DNA from: Lysobacteraceae bacterium NML07-0707
Lineage (GTDB): Bacteria > Pseudomonadota > Gammaproteobacteria > Xanthomonadales > Xanthomonadaceae
Length of the DNA stretch: 64,000 bases
Reading direction: 5' to 3'
Assembly: GCA_002798295.1 (NCBI GenBank)
Contig: NWQT01000053.1
Location: forward strand, 1 to 64,000
Position numbers and translations under genes: made by a program
Shown here: in pieces, positions 3,560 through 35,182 of the stretch
How the letters are laid out: each line of letters starts with the position of its first letter
Numbering within the stretch: the stretch's first letter is position 1
The notes under the pieces: generated by a model
Databases searched by the model: none
What the model saw: the letters and a program-made list of their open reading frames with translations, nothing else
Told to the model about the DNA's origin: nothing

Positions 3560-4213
3560 CTACATGATTTTCGGCCATGACTCGCGGCCTATCACCGCCC
3601 GTTTCAGGGTTTGCAGCTGACGGCAGGCCGATACTGGCGAGTAAAAGCCATGGCGCTGCAGCAAGTCAGTACGGACGGCTTCGGGCATTTCCACAACGCG
3701 CCCTTCACTCAGGCGCACCTGCAGAAACGGCAAGCGGCCGCGCTTGGGCAGCTCAAGACCGCGTCGCGCTGCCGCCTCGCGCGCCTGCTCGCCAATCGGA
3801 TAGTCCCGATCAGGTTCACGCAGCGCTACAGGACGCACACCATCAGCAAACAATGCAGGCGGAAATTTAAGCTCCAGATAGGCACTCGCTGGCTGTGGAC
3901 GTGGTTTAGTCACCACATACAACCTCGCGCCACACGCCATGCTGCTTGGCAGCGCATCCCGAATCTGTCCCTGCGCCATCAGTGTCCGCAAGGCGGCACC
4001 AGCCTGGTCATCGATCACGGCAAACCGATAATCGCCACCGCCCTTGCCATCCCCCCAGCCTTCGGTCAGCAAATACACCCCACCCTGACCATCGGGCGCC
4101 AAGGCCAGTATCCGACTGTAATCGGTATGCCAGGTTTGGGGCTGCACTTGATAGATGTTGTAGCTACAGGCGGTTAGCAACACCGCCAACAGCATGATGA
4201 GCCATTTCTTCAT
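3560..4213 (-). CDS. Small predicted lipoprotein of unknown function
   Basis: 217 aa. The N-terminus MKKWLIMLLAVLLTACSYN is a type II signal peptide with lipobox LTAC, so the mature protein is probably lipid-anchored at Cys16. The start at 4213 is chosen because GGGAG lies 8 bases upstream and the signal peptide begins there; a 16-residue upstream extension would bury it. The mature part contains LALAPDGQGGVYLLTEGW, reminiscent of a single beta-propeller blade, and a C-terminal segment rich in Arg. I do not recognise the family. It is flanked by terminators on both sides and so is probably monocistronic. Confidence 0.75.
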   Translation of the reverse strand: MKKWLIMLLAVLLTACSYNIYQVQPQTWHTDYSRILALAPDGQGGVYLLTEGWGDGKGGGDYRFAVIDDQAGAALRTLMAQGQIRDALPSSMACGARLYVVTKPRPQPASAYLELKFPPALFADGVRPVALREPDRDYPIGEQAREAAARRGLELPKRGRLPFLQVRLSEGRVVEMPEAVRTDLLQRHGFYSPVSACRQLQTLKRAVIGRESWPKIM

Positions 4214-4341
4214 GGCAACGCTCCCGAAGCTGCTCAAAGCACCCCCATCACCGTATCTCAAGACCAGGCCAGAAGCGAATCACAAGACAGCCGTCTTAAT
4301 CCCGATATACCCCATACCACAGGCCGGCTTGTTTATCCCCA

Positions 4342-4377
4342 CAAACAAAGAGCCGGAATTCCCCGGCTCCTTGTTTG
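4342..4377. terminator. Intrinsic terminator downstream of the AbgT gene
   Basis: CAAACAAAGAGCCGG and CCGGCTCCTTGTTTG pair over 15 positions with one mismatch around a short loop. It follows the stop codon of the minus-strand AbgT-type gene, with T-rich sequence on that strand. Confidence 0.85.
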
Positions 4378-4384
4378 CTTGCCA

Positions 4385-5962
4385 TCAGGGAGATGGATAG
4401 ACATAACTGGCGCCCACGCCCAGTGGCAGCCCCAGCCCCCAGAAAGCCAGCAGGAAGGCCGTCCAGACCACCAGCAGCGTCACCGAGAACGGCAGCATCA
4501 GTGCCAGCAGCGTGCCGATGCCGGAGGCTTTCACATAGCGCTGGCAGAACACCACAATCAGCGGAAAATACGGCAGCAGCGGAGTGATGATATTGGTGCT
4601 GGAATCGCCCACGCGATAGGCCGCCTGGGTCAGGTCGGGCGATACCCCCAGCTGCATCAACATTGGCACCATGATGGCGCCAATCAGCGCCCACTTGGCC
4701 GAGGCTGAACCAATCAGCAGGTTGACAAAGCCCGACAGCAGCACGATGCCAACCACCACCATACCCATCGGCAGGCCGCTGGCTTGCAGGGCATTGGCGC
4801 CCTTGATGGCGACCAGCGCGCCGATTTGGCTCTGCCCGAATGCCCAGATGAACTGCGCACAGAAAAACGCCATGACGATGTAATAGCCCATGCCGCTCAT
4901 CGACTTGCTCATGCCGGCGATGATGTCGCGGTGGTTCTTGACCGCCCCGGACACATAGCCGTACACCATGCCGGGAATCAGGAAGAAGATGAAAATCAGC
5001 GGCACGATGGATTTCATCAGCGGTGCGGCAGGCGCCAGCAGCGGGTGCGAGGTGGCCGGCACCTGTTCGGCAGGCGCGGCCCACGGGGTACCCGGCAGGA
5101 ACAGGGTCAGTGCAAACAGCGCCAGGCTCACGGCGGTTGCGCCCAGGGCAGCCAGTAGCGCGCGGCGCTCGCCCGGTTGCAGGGTTTCCAGCGAGGGCAT
5201 GTCCTCGGCATTGCCATCGACCCGGGTGGCGGCAAGGCGCGGCTCGATGATTTTGTCGGTCAGAAACCAGCCGACCAATATCACCAGAAGCGCCGAGCTA
5301 CAGGTGAAATAGAAATTGTTGAGCGGATTGACGCTTACCTGGGTATCGAGGATATGCGCAGCCGTTTCAGTCAGGCCGGCAAGCATCGGGTCGAGGCTGG
5401 AAGGCACGAACATGGTGGCGGAGAAGCCCCCCGACACCCCGGCAAACGCCGCAGCAATACCAGCCAGCGGATGACGGCCTGCGGCATAGAAAATCACCGC
5501 ACCCAGCGGAATCACCAGCACATAGCCGGCATCCACGGCGACATGGCTGAGAATGCCCACGCCAATCAGCATCGGCGTGAGCAGCATCTTCGGCGTAACC
5601 GACAAGATCGCGCGCAGTCCGGCACTGATAAAGCCGGTGTGCTCGGCCACGCCCAGCCCCAGCATCGCTACCAGCACCACCCCCAGCGGCGGGAAAGTGA
5701 CAAAGGTATTGACCATCTGCGCCATGAATTCGGTCAGGCTGCTGCCTGCCAGCAGGTTCTTGATTTGGATAGCTTCGCCAGTACGCGGGTCGATTTCGGC
5801 AAAGCTCATGGTGGACATCCACCATGACAATCCCCAGACCAGCACCATGAACAACAGGAACAGCACTGCCGGGTCGGGCAGCTTGTTGCCGACGCGCTCA
5901 ACACGATCGAGCATGCGGGTCACTACGGTGCGCCGGGGCAGCGCATTGAGATCTTGAGTCAT
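4385..5962 (-). CDS. AbgT family transporter
   Basis: 525-aa inner-membrane protein of the AbgT family, whose founding member takes up p-aminobenzoyl-glutamate; other members export sulfonamide-like antifolates. Family hallmarks are visible: an N-terminal NKLPDPAVLFLLFM segment, a GVAEHTGFISAGLR stretch, the GGFSATMFVPSSLDP re-entrant loop, and a C-terminal STNIITPLLPYFP hairpin. The start MTQDLN at 5962 is preferred over a codon 10 residues earlier because GGAG lies 9 bases upstream. It is transcribed away from the baeRF-like gene at 6212. Substrate cannot be read from sequence; aminobenzoyl-glutamate uptake or antifolate efflux are both possible. Confidence 0.92.
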   Translation of the reverse strand: MTQDLNALPRRTVVTRMLDRVERVGNKLPDPAVLFLLFMVLVWGLSWWMSTMSFAEIDPRTGEAIQIKNLLAGSSLTEFMAQMVNTFVTFPPLGVVLVAMLGLGVAEHTGFISAGLRAILSVTPKMLLTPMLIGVGILSHVAVDAGYVLVIPLGAVIFYAAGRHPLAGIAAAFAGVSGGFSATMFVPSSLDPMLAGLTETAAHILDTQVSVNPLNNFYFTCSSALLVILVGWFLTDKIIEPRLAATRVDGNAEDMPSLETLQPGERRALLAALGATAVSLALFALTLFLPGTPWAAPAEQVPATSHPLLAPAAPLMKSIVPLIFIFFLIPGMVYGYVSGAVKNHRDIIAGMSKSMSGMGYYIVMAFFCAQFIWAFGQSQIGALVAIKGANALQASGLPMGMVVVGIVLLSGFVNLLIGSASAKWALIGAIMVPMLMQLGVSPDLTQAAYRVGDSSTNIITPLLPYFPLIVVFCQRYVKASGIGTLLALMLPFSVTLLVVWTAFLLAFWGLGLPLGVGASYVYPSP

Positions 5963-6072
5963 GCCTTGAGGCTCCGTTTGCAATCGCGCCATCCTAGCAG
6001 CCCTGCTTGCCAGTCATGACGCCTCTGGCATGGCCAACCCCGCCCGCGCTCCCGCCCCATCGCCGCACAGCA

Positions 6073-6128
6073 GTGTACAACGCGTGAAAATCAAAGATTT
6101 TCAAAGCAAGATACCGCCATTTGTACAC
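6073..6128. promoter_or_regulatory. Nested inverted repeats between abgT-like and baeRF-like genes
   Basis: GTGTACAA (6073-6080) and TTGTACAC (6121-6128) form a perfect 8-base inverted repeat. Inside it sits a second perfect inverted repeat, TGAAAATC-AAA-GATTTTCA (6085-6103). The layout in a 250-base divergent spacer suggests an operator pair with possible looping. No regulator is identified. Confidence 0.4.
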
Positions 6129-6211
6129 ATTTTGCACACATTCCCATCACACTGAGTTGGCCCATGCAGTGCCACCATGGACAGCGATTTCAATCGCTCT
6201 AAAGGAGCCCC

Positions 6212-7357
6212 ATGAGCCAGAACCTCACCCTCAAATCGATCCGCAACACACTTGATTCGCTGCGCAAGGTCAAAGCACAGCCGGCCTTGAGTGCTTTCGT
6301 TTCCACCCATCGCACCCACCCGGACAACAAGCGCGACCCGATTGCGCTCAAAAATGCCCTGAGTGAAGCGCAAACCCGTATCGAAAACGAATACGACCGG
6401 CATACCGCGCAGGCCATCATGGAAAAAATCGATACCGCCCTGGAAGGCTGGGATCACAATTACAACCTGGACACGCTGGCGATTTTTGCCACCGATAGCG
6501 ATGCCAAAGTGCTGCGACTGCCGCTGGATGCCAGCGAGCGCGTAGTGGTGGACGAGCGCTTCTCCACCCGTGACCTGGTGCGCGAGCTTTCCCACGCCAT
6601 CCACTATTACGCCGTGGTGATTACCCGCGAATCGGCGCGCCTGATTGAAGCGGTCAACGACCGCGTGGTGCGTGAGTTTGATGCTGATACGCCCGAGCAG
6701 AACACGCCGAAAATGCTCAATACACCGTTCCCGATCAAGAACACGCTGCACAGCAGCTCAGCCGATCGCACTGCCGCCTCCAATGAGGACAACCACCTGA
6801 AAGAATTTTTCAACCGTGTGGACAAGAGTGTGCAGGAGCTGCGCGCGCGTGCCGGCGAAGAAAATATCCCGCTGTTCGTGATTGGCGACAGCCGCAATAT
6901 CAGCTTCTATCAGGAAGTCTGCGACCGTCCGGAAATCATTGTCGGCAGCGCCGACAAGGTAACCCAGCTTGAAGATGGCAGCGCACTGCACATCATCCAG
7001 AGCATCCAGGATGAGGTCGAAACCTATCGCAACAACCAGCAACAGGCCGCCAAGGAAGGCATCAGCCAGGCACGCAGCCAGAACCGTCTGCTGGTTGACC
7101 TGCAGGATATCTATCGCTCTGCCTACCAGGGCGCAGGTGACACCTTGTATGTGCGCATGGGCTATATGCAGCCGGCACGGGTTGATGAAACGCAACAAAC
7201 CCTGGTGGCCGTGGAGGATGCCAGTGGCGAGGGCGTGAATGATGACGTGGTCGGCGACATCATTGACCTGGTCAAAAACAATGGTGGTCAAGTGGTATTT
7301 CTGCCCGCCGAAATCATCGGCGAGCAGCAGGACATCGCCCTGTCCACACGCTTCTAA
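6212..7357 (+). CDS. baeRF-like (bacterial archaeo-eukaryotic release factor superfamily) protein
   Basis: 381 aa, cytoplasmic, no signal or membrane segments. Residues 27-48 carry the LSAFVSTHRTHPDNKRDPI pattern typical of the baeRF family 3 / eRF1-like N-terminal region (usually xSxYxPTHRxGxxxRQDPIxLKN). The C-terminal part, around DTLYVRMGYMQPARVDE and NNGGQVVFLPAEI, fits the eRF1 domain 3-like segment of this family. Burroughs and Aravind proposed roles in ribosome rescue or hibernation; no enzymatic role is established here. A strong AAAGGAG lies 5 bases before the ATG. It is monocistronic, with a structured divergent spacer upstream. The family assignment comes from memory of motif patterns and needs a profile search. 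Confidence 0.7.
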   Translation: MSQNLTLKSIRNTLDSLRKVKAQPALSAFVSTHRTHPDNKRDPIALKNALSEAQTRIENEYDRHTAQAIMEKIDTALEGWDHNYNLDTLAIFATDSDAKVLRLPLDASERVVVDERFSTRDLVRELSHAIHYYAVVITRESARLIEAVNDRVVREFDADTPEQNTPKMLNTPFPIKNTLHSSSADRTAASNEDNHLKEFFNRVDKSVQELRARAGEENIPLFVIGDSRNISFYQEVCDRPEIIVGSADKVTQLEDGSALHIIQSIQDEVETYRNNQQQAAKEGISQARSQNRLLVDLQDIYRSAYQGAGDTLYVRMGYMQPARVDETQQTLVAVEDASGEGVNDDVVGDIIDLVKNNGGQVVFLPAEIIGEQQDIALSTRF

Positions 7358-28020: not shown

Positions 28021-28116
28021 CGCGCCAGTATCCACCAGATACGACGAAATAATACGAAAATGAGAACTGTTCCCGACAAAGCCCTAAAATACCCGCCCCC
28101 ATTCAAGGAGAGCCTC

Positions 28117-29268
28117 ATGCGTCTTCGCCCTACCCTGATTGCCCTGTCGCTGGCATTTGCACTGCCGCAAGCCCAGGCCGAAACCGTCACTGCCGAGCGC
28201 GTGGCACAGCACTATGCTGCGCTGGTACAGGCCAGCTATGACGATACCTTGGCAGCTGCGCAGGACATGCAACGCGCGATTGAAGCCTTCAACGCTGCGC
28301 CTTCGCAAGCAACTCTGGACACAGCCCGGCAAAAATGGCGCGACGCACGCGAGTTCTACGGGCAGACCGAAGTATTCCGCTTCTACGGCGGCCCCATTGA
28401 CGATGAAGGCGGCATCGAAGGCCGGCTCAATTCCTGGCCGCTGGACGAGTCCTATGTGGATTATGTGGAAGGCCGCCCCGGCAATGGCTTCATCAACGAC
28501 CGGCGCTTCAAGATCAGCAAGGCCAATATCGCGCGCATGAACGAGCGTGGCGGCGAGGAAAACATCAGTGCCGGCTGGCATGCCATCGAGTTTCTGCTCT
28601 GGGGGCAGGATATGCGCGAAGACGGCGCCGGCACCCGCAGCTTTGAAGATTTCGTCGATGGCAAAGGCGCCAATGCCCAGCGCCGCCGCCAGTATCTGCA
28701 AGTGGTGACCGAACTTTTGGTTGACGATCTGGCAAGCCTCGCCGGCGAATGGACCGCCCAGGGCAACAATTACCGCGCCCGCTTCAGCCAGCAGGGTCAG
28801 GAAGCGGTGCGCAAGATTATCGTCGGCATGGGCTCGCTCTCGCGCGGCGAACTGGCCGGTGAGCGGCTGGAAGTCCCCATGGCCTCGCAGGATCAGGAGG
28901 ACGAGCAATCCTGCTTCTCCGACAATACCCACCGCGATACCGTCAACAATGCCCTCGGCATCCGCAATGTCTGGCTGGGCGAGTATCAGCGCCGCGATGG
29001 CAGCCGCCTGCAAGGCCCCGGCATCCGCGACCTGGTGGCGGCCGCCAATCCGCAGCTTGCAGAAAAGACCGGCGCGCAGATTGAGGCATCACTCAAGGCC
29101 GCCGAAGCCATCCAGGCACCGTTTGACCGCGAAATCATTGGCGATGAAAGCGCCCCCGGCCGCCAGCGCGTACAGGCCACCATCGACAGCCTGACCGCAC
29201 AGAGCAAGCTGCTGATTGAGTCGGCCAGCGCCATCGGCATCCAGCAACTCACCCTGGTTGATCCATGA
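28117..29268 (+). CDS. Imelysin-family (peptidase M75-like) periplasmic protein
   Basis: 383 aa with a Sec signal peptide (MRLRPTLIALSLAFALPQAQA). The family motif GxHxxE appears as SAGWHAIEFLLWGQD, and DNTHRDTVNNALGIRNVWLGEY gives the second conserved patch. Imelysins are iron-regulated periplasmic or outer-membrane proteins linked to iron uptake (EfeO and ICMP relatives); protease activity is doubtful. AAGGAG sits 6 bases before the ATG. It overlaps the di-haem oxidoreductase gene by ATGA, the usual pairing for this family. Confidence 0.92.
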   Translation: MRLRPTLIALSLAFALPQAQAETVTAERVAQHYAALVQASYDDTLAAAQDMQRAIEAFNAAPSQATLDTARQKWRDAREFYGQTEVFRFYGGPIDDEGGIEGRLNSWPLDESYVDYVEGRPGNGFINDRRFKISKANIARMNERGGEENISAGWHAIEFLLWGQDMREDGAGTRSFEDFVDGKGANAQRRRQYLQVVTELLVDDLASLAGEWTAQGNNYRARFSQQGQEAVRKIIVGMGSLSRGELAGERLEVPMASQDQEDEQSCFSDNTHRDTVNNALGIRNVWLGEYQRRDGSRLQGPGIRDLVAAANPQLAEKTGAQIEASLKAAEAIQAPFDREIIGDESAPGRQRVQATIDSLTAQSKLLIESASAIGIQQLTLVDP

Positions 29269-30752
29269 GCCGGAAACACATGCTGGCCGTGTTATCGGTT
29301 CTGGCCACCAGCATTGGCGCGGCCAGCTGGCTGCATGCTGCCGCTGGTCATGACGACCCGTTGGGCGAGCAAACCGGCGGTAGCACCACAGTGCCTGCCA
29401 CTGGCCGGAATGCGTTTTCGTTTCCGTTTGCCAATCTGGACGATGCCGAGCGCACCCGCTTTGCCATCGGCAACTCGTTCTTTCGCCGCAACTGGGTGGA
29501 AGCCCCGGCTTCCACCACGGCTCGCGATGGTCTGGGGCCGCATTTCATTGCGCGCTCCTGCGGCGGCTGCCATGTGCAGGACGGACGCGGCGCACCGCCG
29601 GACTACCGCAAAACCCGTGGCCGCGATGCCGAGCCGACCGTAGCCCTGCTGATGCGCCTGTCCATTCCCGGCGAGGCCGACCCCAAAGCCGGGGTACGCC
29701 CCGACCCGGTGTATGGCGACCAGTTCAATAATGCCGCCGTGCAAGGCGTGCGCCCCGAAGGCCAGGTGGAAATTCGCACCCGCCCGATTCATGGCCGCTT
29801 TGCCGATGGCACTCGCTATACCTTGCAGCAGCCGCTGTACCGGCTGGTGCGCCTGGGCTATGGCGCGCCCACCCGAGGCTTGATGATCAGCCCGCGCATC
29901 GCCCCGCAACTGCCGGGCGTGGGACTGATCGAAGCCATCGACGAGGCCGATATCCTTGCCAATGCCCGCGAACAGGCCGCCCGCCCCGACCGCATCAAAG
30001 GCCAGCCCAACCGGGTCTGGGATGCCGTCGCCGGTACCGAGCGCATTGGCCGCTTTGGCTGGAAAGCCAATGTCGCCAGCATCGCCCACCAGACCGCCGG
30101 GGCATTTCTGGGCGATATGGGCATCACCAGCCCGACCTTTCCGTATGAAACCTGCACCGCCACGCAAACCGATTGCCTCGCCGCCCCGCATGGCGGCGGC
30201 AAACGCCGTGGCCGCGACGGCGTACTGAGTGCCGCCGAGGCACATGCCGGACAGCCGGAAATCGACCAGAAAACCCTGAATGACGTGATTTTTTACCAGG
30301 CCACGCTCGCCCCCCCGGCGCGCCGCAATGCCCGCGATACACAGGTCTTGCGTGGACAAAAGCTGTTCCATGATGCGCAGTGCGCCGCTTGCCACCGCCC
30401 CAGCTATACCACCGGCAACCCGCCGTTTCCGGCGCTCGCCAGCGCCAAGGCCAGCGGCCAGACCATCTGGCCGTATACCGACCTGCTGCTGCACGACATG
30501 GGCGAAGCGCTGGCCGATGGCCGCCCCGACTTTGCCGCCAATGGCCGGCAATGGAAAACCCCGCCGCTATGGGGCATCGGCCTGATTCGTGATGTCAACG
30601 GCCACCTGCGGCTGATGCACGATGGCCGCGCCGATGGCGTCATGGAAGCCATCCTCTGGCACGGCGGCGAAGCAGAAGACTCGCGCCAGCAAGTGCTGGA
30701 CATGCCCAAAAGCGACCGCGACGCACTGGTGAAATTCGTCGAATCGCTTTGA
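29265..30752 (+). CDS. Di-haem oxidoreductase (DUF1111 / thiol oxidoreductase family)
   Basis: 495 aa, exported via an N-terminal signal (about 1-26). Two CxxCH haem c sites are seen: SCGGCH near residue 100 and CAACH near 375. The second lies in a C-terminal cytochrome-peroxidase-like domain with YTDLLLHDMGEALADG. The family regularly sits beside imelysins in iron-uptake operons, presumably handling the redox state of iron or a thiol. It is translationally coupled to the imelysin gene (ATGA). A hairpin ends the unit. Confidence 0.93.
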   Translation: MSRKHMLAVLSVLATSIGAASWLHAAAGHDDPLGEQTGGSTTVPATGRNAFSFPFANLDDAERTRFAIGNSFFRRNWVEAPASTTARDGLGPHFIARSCGGCHVQDGRGAPPDYRKTRGRDAEPTVALLMRLSIPGEADPKAGVRPDPVYGDQFNNAAVQGVRPEGQVEIRTRPIHGRFADGTRYTLQQPLYRLVRLGYGAPTRGLMISPRIAPQLPGVGLIEAIDEADILANAREQAARPDRIKGQPNRVWDAVAGTERIGRFGWKANVASIAHQTAGAFLGDMGITSPTFPYETCTATQTDCLAAPHGGGKRRGRDGVLSAAEAHAGQPEIDQKTLNDVIFYQATLAPPARRNARDTQVLRGQKLFHDAQCAACHRPSYTTGNPPFPALASAKASGQTIWPYTDLLLHDMGEALADGRPDFAANGRQWKTPPLWGIGLIRDVNGHLRLMHDGRADGVMEAILWHGGEAEDSRQQVLDMPKSDRDALVKFVESL

Positions 30753-30757
30753 GCACC

Positions 30758-30781
30758 TGCCCGGTACTCAAGTACCGGGCA
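30758..30781. terminator. Hairpin between convergent operons
   Basis: TGCCCGGTAC-TCAA-GTACCGGGCA, a perfect 10-bp stem between the di-haem oxidoreductase gene and the minus-strand exporter. No T-run, so termination strength is uncertain. Confidence 0.6.
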
Positions 30782-30834
30782 CAGCTCAGCTGCGGCAAGG
30801 ATGAAGCCCCCGCAAGCGCCGCCATATGCTGCCC

Positions 30835-32940
30835 CTATATCGAAGCCTCCGCCTGCGCCACCTGCTGCGCACGGTTGTCGATGCTTTGCACAATCTGCCC
30901 GTTATGCAATACCAACACCCGGTCGGCGCTGGCGATGGTTTCCGGGCGGTGGGCGACAATCACCCGGGTGATGTCGAGCTGCTTCACCGCCGCATTTACC
31001 CATTGTTCGTTGTGGATATCCAGATGGCTGGTGGCCTCATCCAGAAACAGCAGCTTGGGCTGGCGATACAGCGCACGCGCCAGAATCACCCGCTGTTTTT
31101 GCCCGCCCGAGAGGCTGCTGCCCATATCGCCAATCAGGCTGTGATAGCCCATCGGCATCGCCATGATTTCATCGTGGATGGCGGCCATGTGCGCAGCCTG
31201 CTCTACCCGCGCCTGATCCACATTGGCATCAAAAAAGCTGATGTTGTCGGCAATGCTGCCGGCAAACAGCTGGTCGTCCTGCATCACCGCGCCCATATAT
31301 TGACGGATGTTTTGTGCACCGACTTTGTGAATATCCTGCCCGCCGATGCGGATGCTGCCTTCCTGGGGCCTCAGCAGCCCCAGCAATAATTTCACCAGCG
31401 TGGTTTTACCGCCGCCAGACGCACCGACAATCGCCACCGACTCGCCCGGCTCGATGCTGAAAGACAAATCCTTCAGCACCCACGGCTCGCCATCGGCATA
31501 GCGGAAGCCCAAACCTTCCACTTCAATCTTCATGTTTTCTGGCGACGGCAGTTCCGCCTGCACCGTGTGGTCTTCCGGCTCGGTCAGCACGATATCGGCC
31601 AGGCGCTCGCCATGCAGGCGCAGCATGCGGAACTCCATCGCCTTGTCAATCAGGCCGCTCATGCGCTGGGCAAACTGGTCTTTATAGGCCAGATAGGCAA
31701 TCAACATGCCCACCGAAAATACGTTCTGCATCGCCAGCAGCGCGCCAATCCAGATGACGGCGATGCGCTCAATGCCAAATACTAGCTGGCTGGCACCAGA
31801 AAAACCCAAGCCCATCCGCGCAAGGCGGATTTCATGGTTGACGGTATCCACCATCAGATTGTCATAACGGCTGCGGCGCAAGCCTTCGGCACCGGCCACT
31901 TTTACGCTTTGCATGCCGCGCAGCGATTCCAGCAAATGCGTTTGCTGTTTGGCTGCAGCCACCAGTTGTTGCTCGGTGCCATCACGCAACGGGCGATAGG
32001 CCAACAGGCGAATGCCCAAGTAAAGCGCCACCGCCAGCAAGGTAATCAGGCTCAACTTCCAGCTATAGAACAGCATCAGGGCGAGCGTGACCACCGCCAT
32101 CAGGCCGTCAATCAACGCCTCGACAAAGCTGGTGGTGAGCGTGCGCTGGATTTCGCGCACTGAACCCATGCGCGAGGTGATATCGCCCAGATGACGTTTT
32201 TCAAAGAAGGACAAGGGCAGCCGCAGCGCATGGGCAAAGACATTGCCCATCCATTGCAGCCCGAGGCGCGAGGACAGATACACCACCGACCAGCCGCGCA
32301 GCAGGCCAATGCCGATTTGCAGCAGCAGCGCCAAGCCAAAGCCCAGCCCCAGCACGGTCAACAGGTCGCGGTCGGCCGAGACCAGCACTTGGTCCACCAC
32401 CCATTGCATAAAGAAGGGCGAGAGCACCACAAACACTTGCAGCGCGATGGACAGCAACAGGATTTGCGCCAAGGCGCGCCATAGCCCTGTCACCCGTCCA
32501 GTCAATTGCCGCACCGAGATGCTGGGCAACGCCTTGCGCGGAGCAAAGGTTTCGCCGGGGGCAAGCTCCAAGGCCACCCCGGTGAAATGCTCGGAGACTT
32601 CTGCCAAGGGCAGCACCCGCTTGCCGATGGCCGGGTCAAGAATCACCGCCTTGCGGCCACTGACTTTTTGCAGCACCACAAAATGATTCAAATCCCAATG
32701 CAGCACGCAGGGCAAGGCCAGCTTGTTCAGGTCATCCATGTCCAGCCGCAGCGCCCGGGTCTTGAAGCCCAACGCCTGGGCGATATGAATCAACTGGTTG
32801 AGCTTTGCGCCTTTCAGTGACAGGGGAAAACGCTGACGCAGCTCCGGCAGTGAAACTTCCAAACCATGCGCGGAAGCCACCATCGCCAAAGAGGCCAGAC
32901 CGCATTCAGCGGCTTCGGTTTGATGCACAAAAATAACCAC
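30835..32940 (-). CDS. Peptidase-containing ABC exporter (C39-TMD-NBD), CvaB-like
   Basis: 701-aa inner-membrane bacteriocin/microcin exporter that removes the double-glycine leader and transports the core peptide. The N-terminal C39 peptidase is complete: oxyanion Gln7, nucleophile Cys13 (QTEAAECGLASLAMVA), His86 (HWDLNHFVVL) and Asp102 (VILDPAIG). Six transmembrane helices follow (about 145-430). The NBD has Walker A GASGGGKTT, signature LSGGQKQR, Walker B LLFLDEAT and the switch His in VAHRPETI. It begins at GTG with no clear ribosome site, about 17 bases after the small membrane-protein gene; a start at the second GTG (position 5) is possible. It is the last gene of the microcin cluster. 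Confidence 0.93.
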   Translation of the reverse strand: MVIFVHQTEAAECGLASLAMVASAHGLEVSLPELRQRFPLSLKGAKLNQLIHIAQALGFKTRALRLDMDDLNKLALPCVLHWDLNHFVVLQKVSGRKAVILDPAIGKRVLPLAEVSEHFTGVALELAPGETFAPRKALPSISVRQLTGRVTGLWRALAQILLLSIALQVFVVLSPFFMQWVVDQVLVSADRDLLTVLGLGFGLALLLQIGIGLLRGWSVVYLSSRLGLQWMGNVFAHALRLPLSFFEKRHLGDITSRMGSVREIQRTLTTSFVEALIDGLMAVVTLALMLFYSWKLSLITLLAVALYLGIRLLAYRPLRDGTEQQLVAAAKQQTHLLESLRGMQSVKVAGAEGLRRSRYDNLMVDTVNHEIRLARMGLGFSGASQLVFGIERIAVIWIGALLAMQNVFSVGMLIAYLAYKDQFAQRMSGLIDKAMEFRMLRLHGERLADIVLTEPEDHTVQAELPSPENMKIEVEGLGFRYADGEPWVLKDLSFSIEPGESVAIVGASGGGKTTLVKLLLGLLRPQEGSIRIGGQDIHKVGAQNIRQYMGAVMQDDQLFAGSIADNISFFDANVDQARVEQAAHMAAIHDEIMAMPMGYHSLIGDMGSSLSGGQKQRVILARALYRQPKLLFLDEATSHLDIHNEQWVNAAVKQLDITRVIVAHRPETIASADRVLVLHNGQIVQSIDNRAQQVAQAEASI

Positions 32941-32957
32941 AGCACATTCAGAGCAAA

Positions 32958-33314
32958 CTATATTTTGTCATTTACAACCGAAAGAATTATTATTGAAAAT
33001 GCAACAACCCCAAAAACAAATGCAACCAACCTAACAGAATTTGACTTAACCAAGTCAGAGTTAGACGTAGAAAGATAAATCCAATCATCAATCCATTTTT
33101 TTGGAATTATCTTAAAAGACCAATTGGGCGGATTCATCAACCTATAACCCAGAACATAGTTCCCCAAAATCAAATAAAAATACACCACTAACTCCAAGAA
33201 ATCCGAATACCCCCCCCGCATTCCGAACAATATTTTTACAGGAACAATAAAAAGCAACCCAAGCCACATGCAAAATTTTGAAGAAAAAATATAAACAGGA
33301 TTCAATATTTTCAT
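32958..33314 (-). CDS. Small AT-rich membrane protein, probable microcin immunity protein
   Basis: 118 aa with about three hydrophobic segments (SSKFCMWLGLLFIVPVKILFG; FLELVVYFYLILGNYVLGY; VRLVAFVFGVVAFSIIILSVV) and a basic loop. I recognise no family. It lies between the precursor gene and the C39 exporter, where class II microcin clusters such as microcin V carry the self-immunity gene. The DNA is roughly one-third GC by eye against about 60 percent nearby, a common sign of a horizontally shuffled immunity module. The ATG at 33314 has GGGG six bases upstream. The immunity function is inference from place, size and membrane topology. Confidence 0.6.
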   Translation of the reverse strand: MKILNPVYIFSSKFCMWLGLLFIVPVKILFGMRGGYSDFLELVVYFYLILGNYVLGYRLMNPPNWSFKIIPKKWIDDWIYLSTSNSDLVKSNSVRLVAFVFGVVAFSIIILSVVNDKI

Positions 33315-33325
33315 CTCGCACCCCA

Positions 33326-33357
33326 AAGTGTTGCAGGAGGAGACTCCCGCAACACTT
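33326..33357 (-). terminator. Strong hairpin between precursor and immunity genes
   Basis: On the minus strand AAGUGUUGCGGGAG and CUCCUGCAACACUU pair over 14 positions (one G-U) around a UCUC loop, starting 12 bases past the precursor stop. No U-run follows. It may be a partial terminator or a 3' stabiliser, raising precursor mRNA above the downstream genes. Confidence 0.65.
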
Positions 33358-33369
33358 CATGAAAATCAC

Positions 33370-33558
33370 TTATTTTTCCATAACGTAAGATGCACCACCC
33401 CAAATAGCTGCACCAAGCGCAGCCCCAATAAGGATACCGCCGCCAGTACCAATTACGAGAGCACCAGCAACAATCCCCACAACGGTGCCAGAAGCAGTCA
33501 TTACGCCATCACCACCTGACACTTCATTTACTTGCTCATCTGTCATTTCTTGAATCAT
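33370..33558 (-). CDS. Class II microcin/bacteriocin precursor with double-glycine leader
   Basis: 62 aa. Leader MIQEMTDEQVNEVSGG fits the double-glycine consensus (acidic, E-L/V at -4 region, GG at -2/-1). Cleavage would give a 46-residue core beginning DGVMTASG. The core has no Cys, is very rich in Gly, Ala, Val and Ile, and places Gly at 8-12-16 and 21-25-29-33, a run of GxxxG helix-packing motifs. It ends WGGASYVMEK. Such cores insert in membranes as helical bundles or pairs. GGAG lies 8 bases before this ATG. An in-frame ATG at 33624 also has a good ribosome site and would lengthen the leader by 22 residues. Flanked by its transport genes, the assignment is strong; target and potency are unknown. 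Confidence 0.85.
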   Translation of the reverse strand: MIQEMTDEQVNEVSGGDGVMTASGTVVGIVAGALVIGTGGGILIGAALGAAIWGGASYVMEK

Positions 33559-33577
33559 TAGTTTTACTCCAAAAGCA

Positions 33578-33594
33578 ACGCATACCCCATGCGT
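33578..33594 (-). promoter_or_regulatory. Small hairpin just upstream of the microcin start
   Basis: ACGCAT / ATGCGT pair around a 5-base loop, followed on the minus strand by TGCTTTT and then the GGAG ribosome site of the precursor. It could tune translation or processing between the cvaA-like gene and the precursor. Confidence 0.3.
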
Positions 33595-33646
33595 CACGGG
33601 TTCGGGCGAAATACCCGGATTCATCGTGTTTTCCCTCTGCCTGTCG

Positions 33647-34909
33647 CTAGCTTTGCAACTTGCCTTTCAGCGAATACAGCGGTTCAAACACCCATTCGAT
33701 AAGCCTGCGCTTCTCGCCCAGAATGTCCGCCTCCAGCAGCATGCCGGGCTTCAGCGGTTCAGGTTTTCCGTAGGCAGTAATGGTTTGCGCTGCCAGTTGT
33801 ACGGTGACGCGGTACAGCGGTTCGCTTTGCAGGGCGCTACCCAGCAGGGTTTGCAATTCACTCTGGTTCAGCGCGCTGCGGCTGATTTGTTTCACTTCGC
33901 CCTGTTGGTGGCCGAATTTTTGGTAGGGAAATGCCTGATAACGCAACAGCACTTTGTCGCCCGGCTCGACAAAGCCGATGGCATGGCTGGGTACGAGGAG
34001 TTCTGCTTCCAGTGTGCCTTCTCCGGGCAATACCGCCATCAAGGGCTGGCCTGCCTGTACTGCCTGGCCGGTTTTGCCCAGCTGGGTGGCGACAATGCCC
34101 TGGGCGGGGGATTTAATCGCCAGGGCACTGCGGGCTTCGCTTTCCAGCCGTTCCTGCTCCAGCAGGGCCTGGTCGCGGGAAAGATTGGCCTGGCTTGCCA
34201 GCCGTTGGCCGGGCAGTTCTTGCTGAGCTTGTTGCAATTGCGCGATATGGCGGCGGGTTTGTGTGGCTTGCCGTTCAAGCAGTTGTACATCGGCCTGGGC
34301 TTGCAGCCGCGCAGCCTGTTGCTGCCGCACTTGCAGTTGGCTGACGTATTTGTCTGCGGCCAGTTGCTGCATGCGTTGCAAGGTGTCGGCAGCGATTTGT
34401 GCCTGTTCACGGCGGTTGGCGATTTCTGCTTGCAGTTGCGCCAGTTCTTGCCGGGCTGTGGCTAGCTGCGCGGCGATACCGCTGCCCTGGGCATTCAATA
34501 ATTGCTGCTGGGCTTGATGGCTTTGTTGCAAGCTGTGCTGGCGGCGGGTCAGACGCTCATGCAGTGCGGTGGCGGCATCGCCCGCTTCGGGGGTGGCCAG
34601 TGGTACACGCACCACGGCCAAGGTTTGGTCACGTTGCACGGCACTGCCTTCTGTGACCTGCATTTGGCTGATGATGCCGGTGGCGGGGGCAAGAATCATC
34701 GCCATGCCCTGGCTTGGCACCAAATGGCCGCTGACTTGCGCGCGGCGGGTATAACTGCCGAAAAACAGGAACAGGCCGATGGCGAGTGCGGCCAGTGCGG
34801 CAAAGCCGGTCAGCACCCACAGCGGCAGCGGTTGTGCCAACGAAATGCTGCCCAGCCAGCTACCGCGCTTGGCTTGCAGAACTTCTTGCCGGAACAGTGC
34901 CTGAGTCAT
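33647..34909 (-). CDS. HlyD/CvaA-family membrane fusion protein of the microcin exporter
   Basis: 420 aa. Short cytosolic N-terminus, one transmembrane helix (LPLWVLTGFAALAALAIGLFLFFG, about 28-51), an N-terminal lipoyl half (SGHLVPSQGMAMILAPATGIISQ), a long Gln/Ala-rich coiled coil (about 120-260), the second lipoyl half (KSPAQGIVATQLGKTGQAV) and a beta-barrel domain. Such proteins link the inner-membrane C39 ABC exporter to TolC. It is the first gene of the minus-strand cluster, upstream of precursor, immunity candidate and exporter. The outer-membrane partner is not in this window, as usual for these systems. AGGG abuts the ATG, so the ribosome site is poor. Confidence 0.9.
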   Translation of the reverse strand: MTQALFRQEVLQAKRGSWLGSISLAQPLPLWVLTGFAALAALAIGLFLFFGSYTRRAQVSGHLVPSQGMAMILAPATGIISQMQVTEGSAVQRDQTLAVVRVPLATPEAGDAATALHERLTRRQHSLQQSHQAQQQLLNAQGSGIAAQLATARQELAQLQAEIANRREQAQIAADTLQRMQQLAADKYVSQLQVRQQQAARLQAQADVQLLERQATQTRRHIAQLQQAQQELPGQRLASQANLSRDQALLEQERLESEARSALAIKSPAQGIVATQLGKTGQAVQAGQPLMAVLPGEGTLEAELLVPSHAIGFVEPGDKVLLRYQAFPYQKFGHQQGEVKQISRSALNQSELQTLLGSALQSEPLYRVTVQLAAQTITAYGKPEPLKPGMLLEADILGEKRRLIEWVFEPLYSLKGKLQS

Positions 34910-35073
34910 CCCTGAACAATTGATGAGTAAAAGTGAGGGCGCAGTATTACGTACGCCACCGCATTCAGGAAACAGTCATGAATGACTTTTTGTGTGATTT
35001 GTTCCGCAAATCTGAAAATTGGTTGCCGGTTTTTACGGCTACCCCACCCAACTCGGCTCTTTGAGTCCAAAAA

Positions 35074-35100
35074 CAAAGCCCGGCGCGTGGCCGGGCTTTG
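35074..35100 (-). terminator. Intrinsic terminator of tRNA-Gly
   Basis: CAAAGCCCGGC / GCCGGGCTTTG, a perfect 11-bp stem with a 5-base loop, followed on the minus strand by TTTTTGG. Confidence 0.9.
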
Positions 35101-35108
35101 GGGTGATT

Positions 35109-35182
35109 TGGAGCGGGTGATGGGAATCGAACCCACGCTATCAGCTTGGGAAGCTGAAGTTCTACCATTGAACTACACCCGC
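35109..35182 (-). tRNA. tRNA-Gly (anticodon CCC)
   Basis: 74 bases including an encoded CCA. Acceptor stem GCGGGTG/CACCCGC, D-arm GTTCAATGGTAGAAC, anticodon stem TCAGC/GCTGA with loop TTCCCAA (anticodon CCC), and T-arm TGGGTTCGATTCCCA. The layout closely follows E. coli glyU. It reads GGG codons. Confidence 0.97.

What the first reader, a model, noticed from the sequence alone, without database searches (positions are those of the whole stretch)
30835..34909. A complete, unfamiliar class II microcin system
Four co-directional genes make a self-contained export system: CvaA-like fusion protein, a 62-aa double-glycine precursor, a small membrane protein, and a C39-containing CvaB-like exporter with all four catalytic residues. 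Such clusters are well known in enterobacteria (microcin V family) but less described in Lysobacterales, and I do not recognise the core peptide. Its 46 residues lack Cys and carry GxxxG steps at Gly 8-12-16 and 21-25-29-33. That suggests a tightly packed membrane helix or a homo-oligomeric pore.
Basis: partly seen in the sequence, partly recalled or inferred. Interest (0 to 1): 0.8.

Follow-up and report, generated by a model that had tools for sequence, protein, structure and literature searches.

The report
Swappable bacteriocin cassette with RNA leader
The four genes look like a small secreted antibacterial peptide with its guard protein and export pump, a known kind of weapon; what is new is a folded RNA element in front of the peptide gene, which also stands in front of many unrelated peptides sent out by the same kind of pump in related bacteria.

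Summary
The four-gene cluster is real: membrane-fusion protein (MFP), 62-aa double-glycine precursor, 118-aa membrane protein, C39 exporter with Q7/C13/H86/D102. Best reading: a one-peptide glycine-zipper bacteriocin system (Cdz-like/class II), a new member of a known kind. The core reaches no Pfam or NCBIfam cut-off, but peptide and putative immunity protein recur together in two other genomes (87%/63% and 50%/39% identity). The GxxxG pattern is not above composition (P=0.076). In Lysobacteraceae the exporter is conserved while the cargo varies; a relative has another cargo at the same site, with breakpoints just before the peptide start and at exporter codon 7.

Unexpected: a structured RNA of about 57 nt (33566-33622, minus) just before the peptide start. 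A covariance model from 8 copies finds 12 more at E<=0.0025 in 1.21 Mb; all 20 directly precede double-glycine-type ORFs (13 by pattern, 7 by eye). An independently fetched locus has it too (1.3e-10). Eight of 10 pairs change on both sides; Rfam lacks it. Killing and regulation are untested.

The parts
33647..34909 (-). CvaA/HlyD-type membrane-fusion protein, 420 aa
   Evidence: HlyD_3 2e-16; TIGR01843 3e-48, below its curated cut-off
33566..33622 (-). Conserved structured RNA element in the 5' UTR of the peptide gene: hairpin 1, CCC linker, hairpin 2 with a GGGG loop, then the Shine-Dalgarno
   Evidence: covariance models R1/R2: 60.1 and 55.7 bits, a seed of both; covariation over 20 copies; no Rfam match
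33370..33558 (-). Double-glycine precursor, 62 aa: 16-aa leader MIQEMTDEQVNEVSGG and 46-aa glycine-rich core
   Evidence: orthologue in G006 (87%), relative in L010 (50%); dN 0.08, dS 0.91 against G006
32958..33314 (-). 118-aa basic membrane protein, putative immunity protein
   Evidence: hydropathy peaks 14-32 and 96-114; helices 6-30, 36-60, 72-83, 92-117 in a low-confidence model; found with the peptide in 3 genomes
30835..32940 (-). C39 peptidase-containing ABC exporter (PCAT), 701 aa
   Evidence: (PCAT1 4ry2 over residues 3-687, 4e-97)
35109..35182 (-). tRNA-Gly(CCC) next to the cluster; the variable region (about 28038-35075) begins 34 nt beyond its 3' end
   Evidence: in G006 the two flanks lie 96 bp apart

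Best explanation
This is a one-peptide glycine-zipper bacteriocin cassette (Cdz-like/class II type) plugged into a conserved exporter locus of Lysobacteraceae. Proposed working: the mRNA in front of the peptide folds into a two-hairpin RNA that controls translation of the precursor. The C39 domain cuts after Gly-Gly during export through ABC exporter, MFP and a TolC-type channel. The 46-aa core, probably two short zipper helices, inserts into the inner membrane of neighbouring cells, after release or from the producer's surface. The 118-aa membrane protein protects the producer. Cargo (leader, core, immunity gene) is exchanged between strains while MFP and exporter stay, with the RNA element at the upstream junction. 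Shown here by sequence: gene content, intact catalytic residues, joint occurrence of peptide and 118-aa protein, purifying selection on the peptide, sharp cargo breakpoints, and an RNA with covariation whose strong matches all precede double-glycine-type ORFs. Inferred: export, killing, immunity, and what the RNA responds to.
For: Exporter domains and residues. Leader-type ORFs on the coding strand of 17 of 20 cargo gaps, against 0 hits in 460 kb of control strand (the pattern was written after seeing several of these leaders). Peptide and putative immunity recur together in G006 and L010. Peptide dN/dS about 0.09. The published Cdz-like criteria that could be checked are met: 60-151 aa, leader ending in GG, zipper not interrupted by Pro or charge (core residues 2-44), short polar C-terminus, type I exporter nearby (PMC5380434). 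Same site, other cargo in G005; empty site in G006. RNA: 20 matches at E<=0.0025 (8 seeds, 12 not), ending 5-15 nt before the start of a double-glycine-type ORF; one more, in a locus fetched by peptide profile and not by exporter, at 1.3e-10; 8 of 10 pairs with changes on both sides, 0 of 500 shuffles.
Against: No activity data. GxxxG count not above composition. Curated cut-offs not reached (Bacteriocin_IIc 19.2 of 27.1 bits, MccV 17.6 of 27). CdzC/D sequences were not on hand, so homology to them is untested. The 118-aa protein has no family match at a meaningful score. The window RNA alone is not unusually stable (z 0.08) and its minimum-energy fold pairs the linker with the loop instead of forming hairpin 2. 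The linker-loop pseudoknot shows no covariation (P=0.37). Weak model matches that precede no double-glycine ORF exist, the best at E 0.0072 inside an antisense reading frame of this genome (L169).
Confidence: 0.68

Rival explanations
1. Diffusible class II microcin of the enterobacterial kind, taken up through a specific outer-membrane receptor.
For: Same gene set and leader type as the MccV system; weak MccV profile match, E 0.0057.
Against: Core of only 46 residues with no Cys pair and no Ser/Gly-rich siderophore tail; no modification genes in the cluster. The two-domain uptake/toxin architecture described in PMC13174018 has little room.
Confidence: 0.2
2. Secreted signal or host-interaction peptide rather than a toxin, like RaxX of Xanthomonas.
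For: RaxX is a 60-residue double-glycine precursor exported by RaxAB in the same family (PMC6637879, passages).
Against: No sulfotransferase-sized extra gene in the cluster; core very hydrophobic (GRAVY 1.21); linked membrane protein found with the peptide in three genomes.
Confidence: 0.08
3. One half of a two-peptide bacteriocin whose partner lies elsewhere.
For: GxxxG peptides are found in many two-peptide bacteriocins (PMC5380434 passages); other loci here carry two adjacent double-glycine ORFs (L105, L018, L011).
Against: A leader-pattern scan of this genome gave 36 matches; 32 were looked at in frame and, the window's own aside, none was a convincing precursor by eye. No second one in the gap. 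Most Cdz-like systems in PMC5380434 have a single peptide.
Confidence: 0.07
4. The RNA element is only a by-product of shared ancestry of leader regions or a translation enhancer, not a regulated structure.
For: It abuts the Shine-Dalgarno; a G-rich motif acted as translational enhancer in Xanthomonas (PMC3771888, passages); single-sequence z-score 0.08.
Against: Compensatory changes in both hairpins across 20 distinct copies; retained before unrelated cores.
Confidence: 0.2

Closest known systems
Cdz system of Caulobacter crescentus and Cdz-like systems (PMC5380434; abstract, passages and one methods section read)
   Same: Type I exporter plus MFP, small precursors with leader ending in G[G/A/S], glycine-zipper core free of Pro and charge, small membrane immunity protein, patchy distribution, cargo more variable than exporter.
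   Different: One peptide, not two; two divergent operons in Caulobacter; surface aggregation and contact dependence unknown here; a structured RNA is not mentioned in the parts read.
Microcin V / class II microcins of enterobacteria
   Same: CvaA-CvaB-type export genes, double-glycine leader, linked membrane protein.
   Different: No Cys pair, no siderophore tail, shorter core (sizes recalled); below the MccV profile cut-off.
Predicted class II microcins of Xanthomonas (PMC13174018; abstract, passages, one section) and cvaC of Xylella (PMC11885251; passages)
   Same: Same bacterial family, same kind of precursor; weak similarity to a peptide of another genus of the family (G347, E 1e-4).
   Different: Sequences of those candidates were not compared.
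RaxX-RaxSTAB (PMC6637879; passages)
   Same: Double-glycine precursor with C39-type exporter in Xanthomonas; island-like inheritance with sharp boundaries.
   Different: No sulfotransferase gene in the cluster; different core.
sX13 sRNA targets with GGGG motifs near the start codon (PMC3771888; passages)
   Same: The element presents GGGG 27-30 nt before the ATG; sX13 was found only in this family according to the paper.
   Different: The paper says position and flanks of the motifs are not conserved among its targets; presence of sX13 in this genome was not checked.

Membership tests
Cdz-like glycine-zipper systems | Precursor of 60-151 residues | tested here: met
   62 aa; criterion from PMC5380434
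Cdz-like glycine-zipper systems | Leader ending in G[G/A/S] | tested here: met
   MIQEMTDEQVNEVSGG
Cdz-like glycine-zipper systems | One or two glycine zippers not interrupted by Pro or charge | tested here: met
   Gly 8-12-16 and 25-29-33, no Pro or charge in core residues 2-44; but GxxxG count not above composition, P=0.076
Cdz-like glycine-zipper systems | Short polar or charged C-terminus | tested here: met
   ...SYVMEK
Cdz-like glycine-zipper systems | Type I exporter within 10 kb | tested here: met
Cdz-like glycine-zipper systems | Sequence homology to CdzC/CdzD profile | not tested
   their sequences were not on hand
Cdz-like glycine-zipper systems | Surface retention and contact-dependent killing | not testable with these tools
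   needs experiment
Class IIa microcins | Cysteines (disulfide) | tested here: not met
   no Cys in the core
Class IIb microcins | Ser/Gly-rich C-terminus and siderophore modification genes | tested here: not met
   C-terminus SYVMEK; only four genes in the cluster
Pfam MccV (PF17508) and Bacteriocin_IIc (PF10439) | Score over the curated cut-off | tested here: not met
   17.6 of 27 and 19.2 of 27.1 bits
Peptidase-containing ABC transporters | C39 domain with Cys, His, Asp and Gln plus ABC domains | tested here: met
   (catalytic roles recalled)
RaxX | Linked tyrosylprotein sulfotransferase | tested here: not met
   only MFP, peptide, membrane protein and exporter between 30835 and 34909
Rfam RNA families | Match to any of 4227 models | tested here: not met
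   none at the element in the window at E<=5, nor in the stretches tested of L103, L137, L015 at E<=1

The most novel reading that the evidence does not exclude
The 57-nt element is an undescribed cis-regulatory RNA class of Lysobacteraceae that marks double-glycine bacteriocin precursors. Together with the leader it forms a plug-in format: cargo that lands behind the RNA element and carries the leader comes under the host's translational control and export. Its GGGG loop may be a docking site for the family's C-loop sRNA sX13 or for a ligand or protein, with the CCC linker as internal competitor (pseudoknot or alternative hairpin). One signal would then arm many unrelated toxins.
Probability: 0.55. 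Interest if true: 0.78.

Novelty: new variant of a known kind. Interest (0 to 1): 0.6.

Why it matters
Bacteriocin genes are found by their short, fast-changing peptides, which sequence searches often miss. A conserved RNA just in front of the start codon would be a search handle for new double-glycine peptides of any core type in a family that includes plant pathogens and clinical isolates. It would also mean that unrelated secreted peptides share one translational control. The clean cargo exchange between close relatives, with breakpoints at the peptide start and the exporter start, offers a tractable example of toxin-immunity cassette turnover. The peptide itself adds one small family to a known kind.

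Tried and rejected
GxxxG as a significant motif: rejected as evidence by itself. Second precursor in the genome by DNA pattern of the leader: the first pattern missed the window's own peptide because it required Glu before the hydrophobic residue; the wider one gave 36 matches, its reversed control 19. Of the 36, 32 were looked at in frame (29, L150, L155 and L156); apart from the window's own none looked like a precursor by eye; four had no locus and were not looked at. Second C39 match (contig C10): a HlyB-type exporter with no obvious Cys at the C39 site, beside its own MFP. Peptide searches in plasmids and phages: no match. Peptide profile over 398 genomes of the order: 12 genomes besides the window's, mostly other glycine-rich proteins; clear leaders only in G597 and G175, and G175 carries the RNA element. 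The G134 match to the 118-aa protein (E 0.001, 63 residues of a 333-aa frame) is taken as chance. The 146-aa ORF beside the G347 peptide is not detectably related to the 118-aa protein. Single-sequence structure predictions are of low confidence (mean pLDDT 69 and 55); no fold search was made. MAFFT alignment of 14 elements misplaced the stems, so a seed of 8 was used. Pseudoknot by covariation: not supported. The first dN/dS run had wrong coordinates for the peptide and that gene was redone.
Full report
1. The observation. The four genes are present on the minus strand where stated. The exporter carries Peptidase_C39, ABC membrane and ATPase domains and aligns over residues 3-687 with the solved peptidase-containing transporter PCAT1 (4ry2, 4e-97). 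Q7, C13, H86 and D102 are conserved in 45, 45, 46 and 46 of 46 aligned exporters, window included (their catalytic role is recalled). The peptide's leader, MIQEMTDEQVNEVSGG, fits the double-glycine type. The 46-aa core has no Cys, 31 of 46 residues are G/A/V/I, and its mass is 4232.9 Da. The GxxxG pattern is as described but not above what the composition gives (P=0.076). All seven zipper glycines are nevertheless kept in the G006 and L010 relatives. OEP-family channels that could serve as TolC are elsewhere in the genome.

2. Relatives of the cargo. In 17 genomes of the genus the peptide occurs in 2, this one and G006, with 87% identity. In 395 genomes of the family only those two give strong matches to the 118-aa protein; a third, G134, is weak. 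A third pair lies in L010, a Lysobacterales metagenome bin: peptide 50% identical (shared GALVIGT and AIWGGA), membrane protein 39% identical, both between MFP and exporter. Joint occurrence in three genomes supports a toxin-immunity pair. Between window and G006 dN/dS is about 0.09 for the peptide, 0.25 for the 118-aa protein, and 0.07 and 0.09 for MFP and exporter; dS is about twice as high in the cargo (0.91, 1.05) as in MFP and exporter (0.46, 0.39), consistent with a separate history. These are NG86 estimates on short genes.

3. The locus as a cargo slot. An exporter relative at E<=1e-200 is present in 135 of 395 family genomes, and at E<=1e-100 in 8 of 17 of the genus. One search placed MFP and exporter in 52 fetched loci. 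For the cargo count I took 22 of these plus the window; others with an upstream MFP (L027, L028, L029, L032, L039, L041, L044, L068, L082 and duplicates of held loci) were not taken. Three of the 23 had no gap. Of the 20 with a gap, 17 hold at least one leader-type ORF on the coding strand, against 0 in 460 kb of control strand. Cores differ widely. G005 has MFP and exporter at the same genomic site (93-94% nucleotide identity) but another cargo: homology breaks 20 nt before the window's peptide start, at the 3' edge of the RNA element, and resumes at exporter codon 7. In G006 the window's site lacks the region 28038-35075, the flanks lying 96 bp apart, and the system sits on another contig. 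In G014 the flanks are on two contigs and no exporter was found at E<=1e-100. Fragments of the MFP 3' end stand inside the gaps of L007, L010 and L080, 3 of 88 loci searched (other partial matches there are cut by contig ends), as expected if cassettes arrive by recombination at the MFP end.

4. The RNA element. Comparing the cargo variants showed that about 45 nt before the peptide start are nearly identical in window, G005 and G006, although in G006 the bases just before them differ. Upstream regions of other loci showed the same layout: hairpin 1, a CCC-type linker, hairpin 2 with a G-rich loop, then the Shine-Dalgarno. A covariance model from 8 copies (R1) was run over 94 sources, 1.21 Mb, both strands. 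It gave 24 matches at E<=1: 20 at E<=0.0025, of which 12 were not seeds. All 20 end 5-15 nt before the start of a double-glycine-type ORF (for L015 and L007:4059 the GTG starts, 9 nt beyond). 13 of the 20 ORFs fit the leader pattern; the other 7 (L036, L103 twice, L041, L039, L009:4877, L013) were judged by eye, L013 being the least typical. Of the four weaker matches, L008 also precedes a double-glycine ORF; L033, L105:11866 and window 38463 do not. A second model from the 20 (R2) adds L036:4750 and keeps L008, so 22 of 22 matches at E<=0.024 precede such ORFs; the one further match, L033 at E 0.097, is partial. With filters off on 6 chosen loci, L006 (3e-5) and L010 (0.0029) follow, both before double-glycine ORFs, and L022 (0.11, X. 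albilineans) likewise. L012 scores only 1.2 at the right place and 0.082 at a place without such an ORF; the other weak matches there I take as noise, having looked only at L024:5101. A further 72 loci, 218 kb, fetched for other reasons, gave 4 matches at E<=1: L179 (G175, brought in by the peptide profile) at 1.3e-10, directly before MRELNFEEISAVDGG, and three others (0.0072, 0.23, 0.3) that precede no double-glycine ORF; the 0.0072 one lies inside an antisense frame of 367 aa. None of the 36 exporter loci whose titles do not name Lysobacteraceae (L046-L067, L069-L079, L081, L083, L084) has a match at E<=1. Window, G005 and G006 copies are close kin and not independent. Later ORFs of a gap (L105, L018, L011) lack a copy of their own in these searches.

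5. Structure. On the 20 distinct copies 92.2% of cells pair, 8 of 10 pairs have changes on both sides (22 cells), and no shuffle of 500 reaches these values; slid controls fall to 22-58% pairing and at most 3 such pairs. The alignment was fitted to a model whose structure came from 8 of these sequences, which favours it; related rows also count more than once. Linker and loop can pair over 3 or more bases in 21 of 24 hand-listed copies, but re-dealing the loops gives nearly the same total (P=0.37), so the pseudoknot is not proven. The window RNA by itself is not unusually stable, and its minimum-energy fold is another one. No Rfam family matches at the element in the window (E<=5) or in the stretches of L103, L137 and L015 (E<=1).

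6. How it most likely works. The element ends shortly before the start codon, so control of translation initiation is the natural reading. In the list, by hand count, 15 of 24 copies have GGGG and 21 of 24 at least GGG in loop 2. In Xanthomonas, GGGG motifs near the start codon were needed for repression of tested targets by the C-loop sRNA sX13, which was reported only from this family (PMC3771888, passages); a loop-loop contact is therefore a concrete, untested idea. Binding by RsmA (GGA in loop 2 in 12 of 24 by hand count, motif recalled) is less consistent. Export and cleavage follow from the exporter family. Membrane insertion follows from the core's composition and the Cdz precedent.

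7. Comparison with the known. PMC5380434 defines Cdz-like precursors by length, leader, zipper, polar tail and a nearby type I exporter, and the window meets these. The paper's own survey finds mostly single-peptide systems, likely horizontal acquisition, and cargo more variable than the exporter. Homology to CdzC/D was not tested. PMC13174018 reports class II microcin candidates including Xanthomonas. So the peptide system is a new member of a known kind. For the RNA, searches of the held library for riboswitch with bacteriocin and double-glycine, for structured RNA with bacteriocin, and for microcin with riboswitch and Xanthomonadaceae gave listings in which I saw nothing that describes it (one of the listed papers was opened, for passages). 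The library lacks most subscription journals.

8. Verdict. Ordinary in kind, well supported as a cassette system, with an unexpected and testable RNA element. Confidence that the element is a real conserved structured RNA is about 0.9; that it regulates translation about 0.75; that the peptide is antibacterial about 0.7.

Noticed in passing
L100 (G005:C12) about 3855-7229: A second, orphan copy of the exporter (95% identical, one in-frame TAA in the matched stretch) with no MFP found in the locus, near a transposase-like ORF (IS1595-type by recall), and a 77-bp stretch similar to window 35069-35145 (terminator plus part of the tRNA-Gly) that ARAGORN does not call as a tRNA.
   Followed up: partly
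L007:4861-5031, L010:5002-5121, L080:4318-4632: Fragments of the MFP C-terminus inside the cargo gaps, likely recombination scars.
   Followed up: partly
window 28038-35075: The whole region, including the gene at 29265-30752, is absent from the same site in G006 (96 bp instead), so the cluster sits in a larger variable region beside tRNA-Gly.
   Followed up: partly
L028 exporter (Stenotrophomonas panacihumi): Catalytic Cys replaced by Gly in an otherwise long C39 exporter.
   Followed up: no
L103 cargo gap, 111-aa ORF: A LAB_N (lipid A biosynthesis N-terminal) family protein, 7e-24, sits where the immunity gene is expected.
   Followed up: no
L008 cargo gap: Double-glycine peptide followed by two enzyme-sized ORFs (339 and 327 aa); they look like a SPASM-type and an ATP-grasp protein from recall only, so perhaps a modified peptide.
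   Followed up: no
L015 and L138 cargo regions: Rhomboid-like multi-TM ORFs (336 and 352 aa; motif recalled) beside double-glycine peptides.
   Followed up: no
L024 and L007 cargo gaps: ORFs of 147 and 153 aa that resemble CPBP/CaaX-type proteins, a frequent kind of bacteriocin immunity (resemblance recalled).
   Followed up: no
L034: A contig titled Bacillus subtilis carries a 69% identical exporter of Lysobacteraceae type, probably contamination of that assembly.
   Followed up: no
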